Part shown: positions 2,580 through 24,789 of the stretch, in pieces
How positions within the stretch are numbered: position 1 is the first letter of the stretch
Layout of the letters: every line of letters begins with the position of its first letter
Source: Bacilli bacterium
GTDB taxonomy: Bacteria; Bacillota_I; Bacilli_A; RF39; UBA660
DNA length: 63,736 bases
Assembly: GCA_017936845.1 (NCBI GenBank)
Contig: JAGBES010000025.1
Coordinates: forward strand, 1 to 63,736
Direction of reading: 5' to 3'
Position numbers and translations under genes: made by a program
Notes under the pieces: model-generated
Databases searched by the model: none
What the model saw: the letters and a program-made list of their open reading frames with translations, nothing else
What the model was told of the DNA's origin: nothing

Positions 2580-3863
2580 ATGAAAATAAAAGTATTTTTG
2601 TTAAGTATTTTCTTTTTATTATTCATAGTTCTACTAAATTTAAAATTAGAAAATATAAGTTTTAAGATAATTAATAAAGAAAAATTAACAACCAATGAAG
2701 AACAAAAAATTTTAGATAAATATAACTATACAAATAAATATAGTTGTAATAAAGTAAAAGTAATAGATGAAAAAGGAAAAATCCTAGGGAATTATGATTT
2801 AGAAACATATGTTGCAGGTGTAGTATCGGGAGAAACTCATATAATAGATGATTCTGAAACTTTTAAAGCTATGTCAGTAGCAATTAGAACATATACATTA
2901 TATGTTACAGATAATTGTAAATATTCAATTATAAATAGCGAAGCAAATCAAGTAATGGATAATCCTAATATAGTATCTAAAAAAATAAAAGAAGCTGTAA
3001 AAAGTACAGAAGGTGAAATATTAACATTAGATGATAAATTAGTAAAAGCTGAATATGATTCATTCTATAAAGGTGGCAATTTTTATTGTGATTACAAATA
3101 TTGTTACAATACATATTATAAAGTTGGAAATAATAATATAAAACCAACAACACATAAAATAAAAGTTCCAAAAAGTTATTATAATGATTTAGCTGGAGGA
3201 CATGGTAATGGATTAAGTCAATATGGAGCAAAATATTTATCAAGTATAGGTTATAATTATAAAGATATACTTAAATATTTTTATGCAGTTGGCATAAAAA
3301 TAAGTACAATAATAAAACCAAATATAGATGGACTTGAAATAGATGAAGATAATTTTCTAACTAGAAGAACAAAACCAAATAGAAAAAATAAATTTTATTA
3401 TACAAATGAAAAAGCAAATAGTTTAGAAGGAGACTCTACTTGGTATGTAACATCTAGAGCAAATGAAATACTTAATGAACAAAAAATAAGTTATTTGAAA
3501 AATCCAAATGATTATTGTAATATAAATGCTTTTAATAAATCATATGAATACAATAAACCAAAAAAAGGAGCAATAATTAGTTGGGGAAAACATTTAGCTA
3601 TAGTAGAAAATGTATACGAAGATAACAAAATAGATATAACTGAATCATATATAGGTTTAGGATATTATGGAATACAGATGGCTAATGAATATTTAAATCC
3701 TACAGGAAAATTTTATAATGAGAAAACAAATATAGAAGATAGAAAATATAATTGTGAAAATAATAATTCTGGTTGCTTTAAAAGAACAGATAATATAAGT
3801 TTAGAACAAATAAAAAATAGATGGGGATATGATTTTAAATGTTACATATATTTAATAGATTAA
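2580..3863 (+). CDS. SpoIID/LytB-domain protein fused to a CHAP-like domain
   Basis: A 427-residue membrane-anchored wall enzyme. Residues 5-22 form the membrane anchor. Residues about 60-245 are a SpoIID/LytB domain: YVAGVVSGE carries the conserved catalytic Glu (Glu85), and GHGNGLSQYGA is the typical C-terminal signature. SpoIID is a lytic transglycosylase that trims stem-peptide-free glycan during engulfment. Residues about 280-370 look like a CHAP amidase/endopeptidase domain (STWYVTSRANEIL, then PKKGAIISWGKHLAIVE). The usual catalytic Cys of the G-x-C-T-W-Y motif is Ser286 here (codon TCT at 3435-3437), while the His (His338) is kept. It may be a sporulation SpoIID or a general lytic enzyme. 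Confidence 0.85.
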   Translation: MKIKVFLLSIFFLLFIVLLNLKLENISFKIINKEKLTTNEEQKILDKYNYTNKYSCNKVKVIDEKGKILGNYDLETYVAGVVSGETHIIDDSETFKAMSVAIRTYTLYVTDNCKYSIINSEANQVMDNPNIVSKKIKEAVKSTEGEILTLDDKLVKAEYDSFYKGGNFYCDYKYCYNTYYKVGNNNIKPTTHKIKVPKSYYNDLAGGHGNGLSQYGAKYLSSIGYNYKDILKYFYAVGIKISTIIKPNIDGLEIDEDNFLTRRTKPNRKNKFYYTNEKANSLEGDSTWYVTSRANEILNEQKISYLKNPNDYCNINAFNKSYEYNKPKKGAIISWGKHLAIVENVYEDNKIDITESYIGLGYYGIQMANEYLNPTGKFYNEKTNIEDRKYNCENNNSGCFKRTDNISLEQIKNRWGYDFKCYIYLID

Positions 3864-8191: not shown

Positions 8192-9379
8192 ATGAAGTAT
8201 GATTTTAGAAAAATATTTGTGCTAATAAGTATTATATTTATAAGTTTTATGATAGGTTTTTATGGTACTAGACTTATTTATTATTATAAACAAGAAAATA
8301 GAAAAGATAATAAAAGTTATACACTTATAAAATATATAACAAAAGAAGAAAATCTATTAAATAGTACAATAGTAAAAGATAAAAATAACTACTATTTTCA
8401 TAAAAAAACAGAAAATAATTATTTATACTATAGCGGATTAATGTATAGAATACTATATTTAAATGATAAAAGTATTTATGCTATAACAGAAGAAGTAGTA
8501 ACAAATTTAAAATATGGTCAAGATGAAAATTATGATTCTTCAGATATAAAAGAATGGTTAAATAATGTATATAAGAAAAATTTAAATCAAGAATATATAA
8601 AAAATATAACATTGCTAGATAAAGATACATTTTATAAAATAGGAGAAGAAAAAAGCTATGTTATAGGTAATGATTTTTGGGTATTAGATAAAAATAAAGC
8701 TTTAGTAGTAGATGAAAATGGTAATTTAACAAAAACTAATAATTATAGTGATTTTTTAGGAGTAAAACCAGTAGTAGAAATAGATGGAACAAAAGATTAT
8801 ATAACTGGTGATGGAACAAAAGAAAATCCATATTTATTAGAGAACAAAAGTAATAATACTCTAAATGATATTTATGTAGGAGAATATATAAAATATAAAA
8901 ATATAGATTTAAGAGTAATAGAAAAGAATAATGATGGAATTAAAGTATTAAGTTTAAATAAATTAGATGAAAAATGTAGTTTTTCTAATTATACAAATAA
9001 ATATCAATTAAAATATAAAAGTGATCTAGGATATTACTTAAATAATACATATATTAAAAAATTAAATAAAAAGGATTTAATTCAAACAAATTGGTATATA
9101 GGTGAATATAAAACAACTTATAAAGAAACAGAAGATAAATATATAAATACATATATAGGCTTATTAAAAATAGGAGATTATTTTATAAATAGTATTCCAA
9201 ATAGTTATTTAATAACACCAAATAATAAAGATATCTATATAATAAATGATAAAAAAACATTATATACAAATAAAACAAATGAAAAACTTGATATATATCC
9301 TGTATTTACTTTAAATAAAAATTTAATTATAAAAAGTGGATCTGGATATAAAAATAATCCTTATATAGTAGGTGATTAA
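8192..9379 (+). CDS. Membrane-anchored surface protein with two related modules, unknown
   Basis: A 395-residue protein with one N-terminal membrane segment (residues 9-31) and a large outside part. The outside part seems to hold two related modules (about 60-215 and 225-395). Each ends in a similar strand: KPVVEIDGTKDYITGDGTKENPYLL and YPVFTLNKNLIIKSGSGYKNNPYIV, split here at the G-S/D-G-x-K-x-NPY motif. Similar endings occur in DUF6273-like surface proteins of gut Firmicutes, but I am not sure of the family. It is followed without a gap by the phosphodiester glycosidase gene, whose ATG abuts its TAA, so the two form an operon. Confidence 0.7.
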   Translation: MKYDFRKIFVLISIIFISFMIGFYGTRLIYYYKQENRKDNKSYTLIKYITKEENLLNSTIVKDKNNYYFHKKTENNYLYYSGLMYRILYLNDKSIYAITEEVVTNLKYGQDENYDSSDIKEWLNNVYKKNLNQEYIKNITLLDKDTFYKIGEEKSYVIGNDFWVLDKNKALVVDENGNLTKTNNYSDFLGVKPVVEIDGTKDYITGDGTKENPYLLENKSNNTLNDIYVGEYIKYKNIDLRVIEKNNDGIKVLSLNKLDEKCSFSNYTNKYQLKYKSDLGYYLNNTYIKKLNKKDLIQTNWYIGEYKTTYKETEDKYINTYIGLLKIGDYFINSIPNSYLITPNNKDIYIINDKKTLYTNKTNEKLDIYPVFTLNKNLIIKSGSGYKNNPYIVGD

Positions 9380-10411
9380 ATGAAAACAAGAATAAAAACA
9401 TGGGTTATATTAATATTTATAATACTAGATATAGGAGCTATATCTTGTCTTATTTTAGCTTATGGTCCAAATAAAAAATTTAAAAACTTTTTAGTAACAA
9501 CAGCTATGGCTACAATGAATCATAAATATTTAGCAAAAACAATATATAGTGAAAAAACTATAAATCAAGTATTAAAAGAAAATACAATAATAGAGTTAGA
9601 TGAATCAACCAATACAAATGCTATAAAAATAGGTACTTATGAAACAAAAAATTATGAATCAAAATACGAAGAGGAAATATTAAAAAAAGATGAAAATAAT
9701 AGTTTATATAAAATAATCAAACATAAAGAAAATGGAAAAACATTTTATATAACGGTAATATATGATCCATCAAAAATAAGTTTAGCTTTATCATCAAATC
9801 CAGGAGTAATAGGTGATACAATAAAAACAATAGCTAAAGATAATAATGCGATAATTGCTATAAATGCTAGCGGATTTGAAGATTATGGAGGAAATGGTAG
9901 TGGTGCTAGAGCAACAGGAGCAGTTATAAAAAATGGAAAATTAGTATGGAATGGTAAACCAAATAAATGGGGTGGAGGTTTAATAGGATTTAATAAAGAA
10001 CATAAATTAGTTTTAACAAAAGAAAGTCCTACCATAGCTATAAAAACAGGAATGGTAGATGCTGTAACATTTGGCCCATTTTTAATAGTTAATGGAAAAG
10101 AAGCAACTGTTTTAGGTAATGGTGGAACAGGTGTTCATCCAAGGACAATAATAGCTCAAAGACAAGATGGAATAGTATTATTTATAGTAATAGATGGAAA
10201 TGGTAATAAAACAGGATACCGTGGAGGCGTAAATTATAAAGAAATGATTGAATTACTAAATAACTATAAAGCATATAATGCCGCTAATTTAGATGGAGGA
10301 GCATCTAGTATATTAGTAGAAAATAATGAAATAATAAATAACCCAGTAGGATATTCTAATACAGGAGAAAGAAGACATCCTAATGCATGGATAGTAAAAA
10401 ATGAAGAATAA
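9380..10411 (+). CDS. Phosphodiester glycosidase family protein (NAGPA/DUF2233)
   Basis: A 343-residue protein with an N-terminal membrane anchor (about residues 7-30). The NAGPA domain spans about 125-340: INASGFEDYGG, GAVIKNGKLVWNG, FGPFLIVNGK, GTGVHPRTIIAQ and NLDGGASSILV are the family signatures. Family members remove sugar 1-phosphodiesters, such as GlcNAc from wall teichoic or exopolysaccharide links, at the outer face. The substrate cannot be read from sequence. It is co-transcribed with the surface protein before it, and a terminator follows. Confidence 0.88.
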   Translation: MKTRIKTWVILIFIILDIGAISCLILAYGPNKKFKNFLVTTAMATMNHKYLAKTIYSEKTINQVLKENTIIELDESTNTNAIKIGTYETKNYESKYEEEILKKDENNSLYKIIKHKENGKTFYITVIYDPSKISLALSSNPGVIGDTIKTIAKDNNAIIAINASGFEDYGGNGSGARATGAVIKNGKLVWNGKPNKWGGGLIGFNKEHKLVLTKESPTIAIKTGMVDAVTFGPFLIVNGKEATVLGNGGTGVHPRTIIAQRQDGIVLFIVIDGNGNKTGYRGGVNYKEMIELLNNYKAYNAANLDGGASSILVENNEIINNPVGYSNTGERRHPNAWIVKNEE

Positions 10412-22099: not shown

Positions 22100-22129
22100 A
22101 AAAAGCTTTAAATTTCTAAAGCTTTTTTG
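22100..22129. terminator. Bidirectional terminator
   Basis: AAAGCTTTA/TAAAGCTTT stem with A- and T-runs on both sides, between the converging yneF and sortase genes; it includes the sortase stop region. Confidence 0.85.
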
Positions 22130-23726
22130 CATGCACTACTAAACGCATGCTAGAATCTTTGTAACAAGTAGATAATGTTAAAATATTACTATTACTTGTT
22201 ACATCAATATTGAAATTATAAATACTTCTACTTTTAATTTTATCTAAAAAGTTTTTATATTCTTCATCACTAGAAAAATTAGTATAAAGATAATCATTAG
22301 TATTTTTTATAGTATAAATAGAAAATATTTGCCATTTCATATTATTATTTTCTGTATTAAAAGTTATAATTTGATTAGTTTTATTAGTATACCAATTTTT
22401 ATTTAAAACTTTATAAAGAGAACCAAACATAACATAATAATTACCTGAATGACCATAAATAATAGTATTTTTATCTAAATTAATAGGATTGTTTCTATAA
22501 TCCATAAATATCCATCCATTAGGATTTTTAGTTTTATCAAAACTATAATTTAAATATTTTTCATTATTATCAGTTTTAACAACAGGATAACTTATTGTTG
22601 AATTATTAATACTTAACCATCCAACTGTATCACTATTAATTTTTTTTAAATCACTAATAGTTTTAGAATAATTTTTAAAATAAGCACTTTTCTCTTTAGG
22701 TTTTTCCGTTTTAATATCATCTTTTACTTCTTCTTTTTCTGTTAGACTAACTTCTTCATCAACAGTAAAATTATTAGTAACAATTTCATTTATTTTATCT
22801 TGTGTTTCTAAAGTTTTTTTATCATTTTGTTTTTTTAAATAGTATGACATTCCAGTTAGTAATATAGATATTATTATAATATTTAATAAAGTGTTTTTTA
22901 GAATGTTAATATTAAATTCCTTTATTATATTATTTTTGATATATTTATCTTCATATTTTATTTTAAGAGCAATATTATTCTTTTTAATAAATCTTTTATT
23001 ATTATTTTTAATTTTAGAAAAATTATTTAATATATTATTAATATTACAATCGTTTTCAATTATTTCTATTTTAATATTTTTCTTTTTATTTTTTTTAATT
23101 ATTTTTAATATTTCATTTATAACATTTTGATCAAAATATTTAAGATAAATATTTTTCAAATATTTATTTATTTTTAAAAATTGTTCAAAAGAATTTAAAT
23201 CTTTCTTTGTAAGATTTTTATCTATAATAATACTATTTTTATAATAAATATCAGAATAAGTGTTCATATTATTAATTCTAAATAAGTAACTATCATTACA
23301 ATATTTTTTTCTAGTTATAATTTTTAACTTTCTAGATAAATTTAATCTTTCAAAAGTTATTTCATTAATATCATAACAATCAATAATTTTAATATTTTTA
23401 TTATTTAAAATATAATTAAAATCATTAATATCTATTTTCTTCTTTTCATTGATAAATAAATAATTTAGTTCACCTATATTATTTATTAACTTAAAAACAT
23501 TAGTATTAATTTCAGCTTTATCTAAATAGACTTTATGTATATTTTTTTTTAAAATATTTGATTTTATAAAATTAAATATAAAATTATAATTTTCATTAAT
23601 AAAATCTTCACTAAGTGCTAATTCATTTAAATCTAACACATTAGTTTTAGATAATTCATCAATTTTATATTCATCATAATTATAAAAGCAAATATAATCA
23701 TCTTTAAACTTTATTAGTATTTTCAT
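22116..23726 (-). CDS. srtB: Class B sortase with a large N-terminal cytoplasmic domain
   Basis: Transpeptidase that cuts a sorting motif and links proteins to peptidoglycan. The sortase domain (about 350-536) has all catalytic residues: His426 in IYGHSG, Cys521 in TLSTCYKD and Arg528 in MRLVVHAK; GWLSINNSTISYPVV and GWIFMDYRNN are class B marks. A membrane segment lies near 275-295, with a linker to 350. The first 270 residues are predicted cytoplasmic, Ile/Asn/Lys-rich, with a leucine-rich-like alternation of strands, and match no family I know. Normal SrtB is about 240 residues. The divergent neighbour carries a fitting NPKTG signal. Confidence 0.88.
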   Translation of the reverse strand: MKILIKFKDDYICFYNYDEYKIDELSKTNVLDLNELALSEDFINENYNFIFNFIKSNILKKNIHKVYLDKAEINTNVFKLINNIGELNYLFINEKKKIDINDFNYILNNKNIKIIDCYDINEITFERLNLSRKLKIITRKKYCNDSYLFRINNMNTYSDIYYKNSIIIDKNLTKKDLNSFEQFLKINKYLKNIYLKYFDQNVINEILKIIKKNKKKNIKIEIIENDCNINNILNNFSKIKNNNKRFIKKNNIALKIKYEDKYIKNNIIKEFNINILKNTLLNIIIISILLTGMSYYLKKQNDKKTLETQDKINEIVTNNFTVDEEVSLTEKEEVKDDIKTEKPKEKSAYFKNYSKTISDLKKINSDTVGWLSINNSTISYPVVKTDNNEKYLNYSFDKTKNPNGWIFMDYRNNPINLDKNTIIYGHSGNYYVMFGSLYKVLNKNWYTNKTNQIITFNTENNNMKWQIFSIYTIKNTNDYLYTNFSSDEEYKNFLDKIKSRSIYNFNIDVTSNSNILTLSTCYKDSSMRLVVHAKKL

Positions 23727-23814
23727 ATTAACACCCTATTATAATAATAACATATAAAATAAAAAAAATAAATGAAATGTTAGTGTAAAGTAATAAAAAT
23801 TATATAAATACAAA

Positions 23815-23843
23815 TTGACAAAATAAGACAAATGAATTATACT
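23815..23843 (+). promoter_or_regulatory. Promoter of the NPKTG surface protein
   Basis: TTGACA, 17 bases, TATACT, followed by a short leader to the start at 23869. Confidence 0.8.
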
Positions 23844-23868
23844 TATACTGAAGATAGGAGAGTATAAT

Positions 23869-24789
23869 ATGAAAAAAATAACTTATTTATTAACAGCTAC
23901 TATATTTATGTTTTATGGAATTATTTCTACATTAGCATTTGATAATAGTATAGAATTATCAGAAAATATAAAATTTAATACATTTACAACAACAAGCAAT
24001 AATTATGTTAGTTTGTATAATGATTTAAAAAATGATAACACTAAAGTTTATTCGGAAAATATTGAAATTACTCAAGAACAATTTAATACAATAAAAGATA
24101 AAAAGAATGGTCTTAATAATTATGTAAAAGAACAAAGTAAAATAATAAAAGAAAAAGCATATGCTTTAGCAAAAGAAGCAGAACAAATAAATGCTATGAA
24201 TAAACCTGCAGGATATGAATCTATAGATGTTATCAAAATATTAGAAAATGATAACAGTGATAATACTATAACATCAGAACAATATGAATCTTTAAAACAA
24301 ACAGAATATGCAAAAGCATATTTAGCTTACTTACAACATAAAAAAGAATATAACCAATATGTGACAACATTTAATTCAAATGTAGAACAAAAAGAAAAAG
24401 AATTAAAAAGTGTTATTCCATCATTTGATAATACAAAGTGGGAACAACTTAAATTACTAGAAACTTCAGAATTAGCTAACAGATACACTTTAAATATGCC
24501 AAAAACAAGTTATGCTGTAGTATGGATAAAAGCAAGTTTAAATAATAATGATTACTATAATGTAGGAATTTATTGTGCAAAAGAAGCTGAGACTATAGAA
24601 GAACCTAAAATTCCAGAAGAACCTAAAACTCCAGAAGAACCTAAAACTCCAGAAGAACCTAAAACTCCAGAAAATCCTAAAAATCCAAAAACAGGAATAA
24701 AAGAATATAGTATTTATACTGTACTTATATCTTTAGTAGCTGCAAGTGGATACGTAGTTGCAAGAAAAATGAGAAAATTTAGTAAGTAA
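23869..24789 (+). CDS. Sortase-anchored surface protein (NPKTG)
   Basis: A 306-residue secreted protein. Residues 1-24 are a signal peptide. Residues about 60-200 are helical and likely coiled coil. A Pro/Glu/Lys wall-spanning stretch made of EEPKTP repeats (245-270) leads to NPKTG at residues 272-276, a membrane segment (about 280-297) and the basic tail ARKMRKFSK, the classic cell-wall sorting signal. The Asn-Pro form suits a class B sortase, and one is encoded divergently next door. A substrate-sortase pair is therefore likely. The role of the helical domain is unknown. Confidence 0.88.
   Translation: MKKITYLLTATIFMFYGIISTLAFDNSIELSENIKFNTFTTTSNNYVSLYNDLKNDNTKVYSENIEITQEQFNTIKDKKNGLNNYVKEQSKIIKEKAYALAKEAEQINAMNKPAGYESIDVIKILENDNSDNTITSEQYESLKQTEYAKAYLAYLQHKKEYNQYVTTFNSNVEQKEKELKSVIPSFDNTKWEQLKLLETSELANRYTLNMPKTSYAVVWIKASLNNNDYYNVGIYCAKEAETIEEPKIPEEPKTPEEPKTPEEPKTPENPKNPKTGIKEYSIYTVLISLVAASGYVVARKMRKFSK
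24601..24690 (+). repeat. 18-bp tandem repeat encoding EEPKTP
   Basis: Four units of GAACCTAAAACTCCAGAA (first with one change) at 24601-24672 plus one degenerate unit to 24690. The copy number is likely to vary between strains. Confidence 0.9.

What the first reader, a model, noticed from the sequence alone, without database searches (positions are those of the whole stretch)
22116..24789. Sortase B with a 270-residue cytoplasmic domain, facing an NPKTG substrate
All sortase residues are present, but the protein is more than twice the normal size owing to an N-terminal part that precedes the membrane segment and so would be inside the cell. The divergent neighbour ends in NPKTG, a hydrophobic segment and a basic tail. 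A sensory or scaffold domain joined to a sortase would be unusual. The domain's own leucine/isoleucine periodicity suggests a repeat fold.
Basis: partly seen in the sequence, partly recalled or inferred. Interest (0 to 1): 0.55.

Follow-up and report, generated by a model that had tools for sequence, protein, structure and literature searches.

The report
Sortase carrying a cytosolic repeat domain
A bacterial enzyme that anchors proteins to the cell wall carries a large extra domain inside the cell, and its partner surface proteins share a matching short tail on that same inner side, which suggests that the enzyme selects its cargo from both sides of the membrane.

Summary
Window 22116-23726(-) is one intact 536-residue gene: about 270 residues with no signal peptide, one membrane helix, then a complete class B sortase (TIGR03064, above cut-off). 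The divergent neighbour ends in NPKTG, a hydrophobic segment and RKMRKFSK. It is no frameshift: the N-terminal domain was found in 134 of 386 genomes of the window's family (51 of 150 genera), with no clear case as a separate protein. It has no PDB sequence match, and the window member no Pfam match. AlphaFold2 (pLDDT 88) gives a beta-alpha repeat arc; the best, weak, fold matches are leucine-rich-repeat proteins. The new result is a matching class of sorting signal: 69 of 85 fused sortases have a neighbour with x-x-x-T-G, a hydrophobic segment and a conserved cytosolic tail, roughly K-[FYMIVL]-x-[KRQH]-[IVL]-COOH; 0 of 19 signals beside SrtBs without the domain have it. Strong matches to this signal occur in 95 of 134 genomes with the domain and 2 of 252 without. 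I propose that the repeat domain docks the substrate's cytosolic tail, so the enzyme reads its cargo on both membrane faces. Docking is inferred, not shown.

The parts
22116..23726 (-). Fused class B sortase gene, 536 aa
   Evidence: full-length relatives
22953..23726 (-). N-terminal cytosolic repeat domain, residues 1-258 (hairpin 2-16, then beta-alpha units with strands at 35, 65, 89, 114, 135, 165, 192, 219, 253)
   Evidence: AlphaFold2 (pLDDT 86.0 and 87.9); no Pfam hit for the window member, no PDB sequence hit; weak LRR fold matches
22773..22949 (-). Continuous helix, residues 260-318, holding the single membrane segment (about residues 275-297)
22683..22766 (-). Low-confidence linker, residues 321-348
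   Evidence: pLDDT under 50
22119..22670 (-). Extracellular class B sortase domain, residues 353-536; His426, Cys521, Arg528
23869..24789 (+). Divergent substrate gene, 306 aa surface protein
   Evidence: same arrangement in 65 of 85 fused loci with at least 700 nt upstream
24597..24687 (+). 18-bp tandem repeat, 5.1 copies, coding EEPKTP units in front of the sorting motif
24682..24696 (+). NPKTG sorting motif
24697..24786 (+). Hydrophobic segment and cytosolic tail; the last eight residues are RKMRKFSK (24763-24786)
23815..23843 (+). Promoter-like site TTGACA-17-TATACT before the substrate gene
   Evidence: 11 of 12 positions; 5 sites found in the region, 3.9 expected

Best explanation
This is a class B sortase with a leucine-rich-repeat-like cytosolic domain that works as a docking platform for the cytosolic tail of its substrates. 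The substrate is exported and stalls in the membrane through its C-terminal sorting signal. The conserved basic and hydrophobic tail that sticks into the cytosol (K-[FYMIVL]-x-[KRQH]-[IVL]-COOH in most members, RKFSK in the window's genus) is bound by the repeat domain. This places the xPxTG motif under the extracellular active site, where the sortase cuts between T and G and joins the protein to the cell wall. Shown: the intact fusion, its spread in one bacterial family, the predicted repeat fold and topology, the adjacent substrate, and the matched tail class. Inferred: that the domain binds the tail, and that the enzyme cleaves these proteins.
For: The fusion is old and real: domain in 134 of 386 family genomes, 51 of 150 genera. 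Adjacent sorting signal in 69 of 85 fused loci with room, 65 divergent, while the other flanking genes differ between groups. Tail pattern in 69 of 69 fused-sortase substrates against 0 of 19 next to sortases without the domain; Asp after T-G in 1 of 69 against 16 of 19. B. anthracis SrtB needs that P2' Asp for best activity (PMC11987632, passages), so the fused enzymes seem to have given up an outside determinant. Strong profile hits to the signal in 95 of 134 genomes with the domain and 2 of 252 without; 61 of the 145 strong hits lie away from the fused gene, in 44 genomes. Six genomes (G001, G004, G005, G016, G024, G027) hold both kinds of sortase, and the substrates beside their sortases without the domain lack the tail. 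Tail similarity follows the N-domain better than the sortase domain (partial rank correlation 0.54 against 0.24). G342 has two fused sortases whose neighbours have different tail types (KLYKI and KFPQI).
Against: No complex was modelled and no binding was measured. The tail pattern was written after seeing the tails. The genes are linked and the genomes related, so counts are not independent; the partial correlation may reflect only that the N-domain evolves faster. 16 of 85 fused loci have no adjacent signal and 7 of 134 genomes with the domain have no profile hit at all. At E <= 0.01 the profile also hits 104 of 252 genomes without the domain. The window member is a poor example: its N-domain has net charge +16 (median +3 of 53), it lacks the otherwise conserved Asp179, and its tail lacks the last hydrophobic residue.
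Confidence: 0.5

Rival explanations
1. The cytosolic domain is a scaffold or localisation domain that binds some other cytosolic partner (translocon, division or wall-synthesis proteins) and places the sortase; the substrate tail is conserved for another reason.
For: Repeat solenoids bind many kinds of partner; fold matches are generic LRR proteins. Other SrtBs of the same family carry unrelated long N-terminal extensions (L175, L178, L179, L180), so extensions as such are not tied to this tail.
Against: Does not predict that a distinct C-terminal tail occurs almost only with this domain. No other neighbour gene is as widely conserved as the substrate.
Confidence: 0.3
2. The tail is conserved simply because all these substrates descend from one ancestral sorting signal, or because a membrane insertase or protease reads it; it travels with the fused sortase by linkage.
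For: Substrate and sortase are neighbours and largely vertically inherited. The textbook role of the tail is retention only (PMC5569036, passages).
Against: 61 strong hits lie elsewhere in the genome, on proteins of very different length; tail types differ between paralogous fused sortases in one genome. The ectodomains have diverged while the last ten residues have not.
Confidence: 0.16
3. The N-terminal part is a sensor that switches sortase activity in response to a cytosolic ligand.
For: It is joined to the enzyme by one continuous helix through the membrane in the model.
Against: No known ligand-binding domain; the invariant positions of the domain (N152, N187, N266) are asparagines, which may be structural.
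Confidence: 0.04

Closest known systems
Class B sortase (SrtB; TIGR03064) with its single dedicated substrate, such as the B. anthracis SrtB-IsdC pair (NPKTG)
   Same: Same catalytic domain and residues, same NPKTG motif, one dedicated substrate in the window's genome as far as the scan shows.
   Different: A 258-residue cytosolic repeat domain stands before the membrane helix; the substrate lacks the P2' Asp and its class has a conserved cytosolic tail; the neighbour has no known domain above cut-off.
SrtBs of the same bacterial family without the domain (e.g. L185, L187, L188, L189, L222)
   Same: Homologous sortase domain (40-45% identity to the window's for these five), NPxT-type signals.
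   Different: No repeat domain; signals are mostly NPxT[S/A/G]-Asp with plain basic tails.
NF040525, class B sortase specific for LPKTxAVK
   Same: SrtB with a dedicated signal.
   Different: Scores 61.9 against a cut-off of 200; the motif is different.
Leucine-rich-repeat solenoids (SKP2, COI1, TIR1, NLRC4)
   Same: Beta-alpha repeat arc in the model; best though weak fold matches.
   Different: No Pfam LRR hit among the families listed; Foldseek E no better than 4.2e-3; VIA Z at most 7.4 over 98 residues.

Membership tests
Class B sortase (SrtB) | Score above the curated family cut-off | tested here: met
   TIGR03064 158.7 bits against 153.75; 53 of 53 members of A1 match the model at E <= 0.001
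Class B sortase (SrtB) | Catalytic His, Cys (TLSTC) and Arg | tested here: met
   H426, C521 and R528 are invariant in 53 sequences; catalytic roles recalled
Class B sortase (SrtB) | Long helix between strands 6 and 7 (recalled) | tested here: met
   Helix 487-499 lies between strands 462-474 and 515-522 in the model; strand numbering not checked against a solved structure
Class B sortase (SrtB) | Substrate with an NPxT-type motif | tested here: met
   NPKTG in the neighbour; variants in the first two residues in relatives. By sequence only
Class B sortase (SrtB) | Short N-terminal membrane anchor with almost no cytosolic part (usual, not defining; recalled) | tested here: not met
   About 270 residues precede the membrane segment
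Class B sortase (SrtB) | Transpeptidase activity | not testable with these tools
   needs an assay
Leucine-rich-repeat proteins | Beta-alpha repeats of about 20-30 residues stacked in an arc | tested here: inconclusive
   Strand spacing 21-34 in the model; Foldseek best E 4.2e-3, VIA Z up to 7.4; shortened variants L192 and L193
Leucine-rich-repeat proteins | Match to a curated LRR sequence model | tested here: inconclusive
   Window N-domain: 0 Pfam families. Across 53 members 28 families were matched at E <= 0.1, 25 of them shown, none of those an LRR model
NF040525 LPKTxAVK-specific SrtB | Score above cut-off | tested here: not met
   61.9 against 200

The most novel reading that the evidence does not exclude
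A sortase that recognises its substrates from both sides of the membrane: an intracellular repeat domain reads a specific C-terminal tail of the sorting signal while the extracellular domain cuts the xPxTG motif. The positively charged tail, held to be a mere retention device, would then be an address label, and paralogous fused sortases in one cell would sort different cargo by different tails.
Probability: 0.45. Interest if true: 0.75.

Novelty: new variant of a known kind. Interest (0 to 1): 0.6.

Why it matters
The charged tail of sorting signals is described as a retention element that delays secretion (PMC5569036, passages). A sortase with a cytosolic domain matched to a conserved tail would show that the tail can carry specificity, give a simple answer to how several sortases in one cell keep their cargo apart, and offer a modular way to direct proteins to a chosen sortase. 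It also names a surface-anchoring system in a lineage that these searches saw almost only as metagenome-assembled genomes. My ten literature searches listed no paper on a sortase with a cytosolic repeat domain; most subscription journals are not in that library.

Tried and rejected
Frameshift, wrong start or chimeric contig: rejected, since relatives of independent assemblies keep the same full-length frame. N-terminal part outside: rejected, since no signal peptide or earlier membrane segment is found in the window protein and the sortase domain must be outside. Domain as a mobile separate protein: no clear case; most short frames lie at contig ends or are shortened fused sortases (L192, L193, L194), and one is a fragment (G275:C1). 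Occurrence outside the family: a class-wide sample of 395 genomes gave 22 strong hits, all in the same family, and three weak ones (2.8e-4 to 7.8e-4), two of them with stops inside, that I take as chance. Known families for the substrates: ten relatives gave no Pfam hit at E <= 0.01. Sequence search of the N-domain in the PDB: none at E <= 10. PHROGs: one hit at E 0.031, taken as chance. Acidic docking residues: the E126/E141/D176/D179 positions change in the groups with aberrant tails (window genus, L062 group, L203/L209), but this is only two or three independent events, so I do not rely on it. The T-G count (69 of 69) is partly by construction because my scan prefers G at that position. The profile is unspecific at E <= 0.01. 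LRR matches rank among unrelated folds, so the LRR label stays tentative.

Full report
What is there. Window 22116-23726 on the minus strand is one open frame of 536 codons with an ATG start. Residues 331-535 are a class B sortase by curated models (TIGR03064 158.7 bits against a cut-off of 153.75; PF04203) and by similarity to solved SrtB chains. The residues that I recall as the catalytic triad, His426, Cys521 and Arg528, are invariant in 53 relatives. In front lie 258 residues without a signal peptide, then a helix of 59 residues that contains the only membrane segment. The neighbour 23869-24789 runs away from it, 142 bases apart, and has a signal sequence, an EEPKTP repeat region, NPKTG, a hydrophobic segment and the tail RKMRKFSK. 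In the held assembly of this genome (88% complete) this is the only credible x-P-x-T-G sorting signal; the other hits of the scan do not look like sorting signals, several resembling FtsW/RodA-type membrane proteins (recalled). The scan covered P-x-T-G only. The genome's one other sortase match (C27, 168 aa) sits behind a repeat protein that I read as a CnaB-type pilin and that ends in YPKTS.

Is the fusion real and general? A search of 60 related genomes and of the named genome collection gave many full-length relatives, 31-69% identical. In 58 distinct full-length proteins the strongest hydrophobic segment always starts at residue 266-320. A profile of the N-domain alone (53 sequences) matches 134 of 386 genomes of the window's family, 51 of 150 genera, nearly always inside a frame long enough for the whole fusion. 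In a class-wide sample of 395 genomes the 22 strong hits were all from the same family. The records behind the loci are mostly named Bacilli, Tenericutes or Firmicutes MAGs; I suspect the uncultured order RF39 but no tool named it.

What is the N-domain? It has no match in the PDB by sequence and the window member none in Pfam. AlphaFold2 gives a confident model (full length pLDDT 86.0, pTM 0.55; domain alone 87.9 and 0.81): a hairpin and then about nine beta-alpha units with strands 21-34 residues apart. Foldseek found nothing at E <= 1e-3; eight of its ten best rows are leucine-rich-repeat proteins by my reading of the entry titles (SKP2, COI1, CD14, TIR1, tropomodulin). VIA-align Z is at most 7.4 over 98 residues, with unrelated folds close behind. 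Two relatives have a shortened domain, one keeping the first half (L192) and one about the last 100 residues (L193), as expected if units can be lost. I call it LRR-like, tentatively.

The partner signal. In one search I took 94 distinct fused sortases; 85 had at least 700 bases upstream; 69 of these have a neighbour with a sorting signal, 65 of them divergent. Among 59 sortases without the domain, 53 had room, 19 had such a neighbour and 5 were divergent. The other flanking genes of the fused loci differ between groups. The signals differ in kind. Next to fused sortases, T-G is followed mostly by Ser, Asn, Val, Ile or Ala and by Asp in only 1 of 69, the distance from T-G to the end is 31 residues in 56 of 69, and the last residues fit [KDQE]-[FYMIVL]-x-[KRQHNTS]-[IVLMA] (or KFS[KR] in the window's genus) in 69 of 69. 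Next to the other sortases Asp follows in 16 of 19 and the tail pattern occurs in 0 of 19. The pattern was written after looking at the tails, so the contrast matters more than the 69 of 69. The Asp matters because B. anthracis SrtB needs a P2' Asp for best activity (PMC11987632, passages seen).

Co-occurrence. A 36-position profile of the signal (62 sequences) was run over the same 386 genomes. At E <= 1e-6 it hits 95 of 134 genomes with the N-domain and 2 of 252 without; the two, G208 and G298, belong to genera (g69, g65) in which other members have the domain. At 1e-4 the figures are 113 and 12, at 0.01 they are 127 and 104, so only the strong hits are specific. Of 145 strong hits, 82 lie within 4 kb of a fused sortase and 61 elsewhere in 44 genomes with the domain, so some genomes have several such substrates; a few of the 61 may be true neighbours cut off by contig ends. 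I read 39 stretches around strong hits, mostly not next to a fused sortase and two of them from G208 and G298; 38 gave a signal and 27 of 38 fit the strict tail pattern, the others mostly near-variants such as NFFPKI or NRVYKI. One of these signals (L263) is identical to one seen before (L074). Six genomes hold both a fused SrtB and a sortase without the domain that has its own neighbour signal (G001, G004, G005, G016, G024, G027), and the latter signals lack the tail, which speaks against a mere genome-wide habit.

Does the tail follow the N-domain? Over 69 pairs, tail distance correlates with N-domain distance (Spearman 0.73) more than with sortase-domain distance (0.62); the partial correlations are 0.54 and 0.24. 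Tails ending in KFPQ[AI] form one N-domain clade of three (L010, L208, L200); a fourth KFPQ tail (L079) groups elsewhere. The genome that holds L200 (G342) also has a second fused sortase with a KLYKI partner. A faster clock in the N-domain could produce part of this.

Mechanism. The accepted role of the hydrophobic segment and charged tail is to hold the precursor in the membrane (PMC5569036, passages seen). Here the tail is conserved up to its last residue while the ectodomains have diverged, and the conservation goes with a sortase that has a folded domain on the same membrane face. The simplest reading is that the domain binds the tail and presents the motif to the active site on the other side. 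Binding is inferred. Against it: the window's own domain is strongly basic (+16, median +3), it lacks the conserved Asp179, its tail is atypical, 16 of 85 fused loci lack an adjacent signal, though the genome of one of them (L066, G060) has a strong signal 63 kb away, and 7 of 134 genomes with the domain have no hit at all.

Novelty. It is a class B sortase by every defining feature tested, with an added domain and a matched signal class; hence a new variant of a known kind. The literature searches listed no description of such a protein; PMC10868615 (passages seen) reports srtA/B absent from RFN20 and ML615J-28, its wording implying presence in RF39, but no fused domain appears in the passages I saw.

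Noticed in passing
L066:1212-5846 (same place as L093, G060): The gene divergent from this fused sortase is a 1545-aa FtsK/EssC-like ATPase (my reading of the sequence; type VII secretion) in place of a substrate; the genome's strong sorting signal lies 63 kb away.
   Followed up: partly
L175, L178, L179, L180: Other SrtBs of the family carry long N-terminal extensions before the membrane segment that are unrelated to this domain; L180 (656 aa) seems to hold a duplicated domain that also resembles the one in L178.
   Followed up: no
G000:C27:6371-6712 (L001): Second sortase of the window's genome, 168 aa, behind a repeat protein ending in YPKTS: looks pilus-type, apparently a separate system.
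   Followed up: no
L033:7656-8762 and 8897-10030: Two tandem NPQTG surface proteins with the same tail (KNKKIFVK) face the 3' end of a fused sortase in the window's genus.
   Followed up: no
G275:C1:4328-4462: A 44-residue start of the N-domain in a 53-aa frame, about 600 bases from a strong sorting signal (3619-3726): perhaps a remnant of a fused gene.
   Followed up: no
G145 (contigs C36, C47, C64): One genome with nine sortase matches, three of them fused to the repeat domain.
   Followed up: no
window 24597-24687: 18-bp tandem repeat (5.1 copies) coding a Pro-rich, probably wall-spanning stretch; copy number may vary between strains.
   Followed up: no
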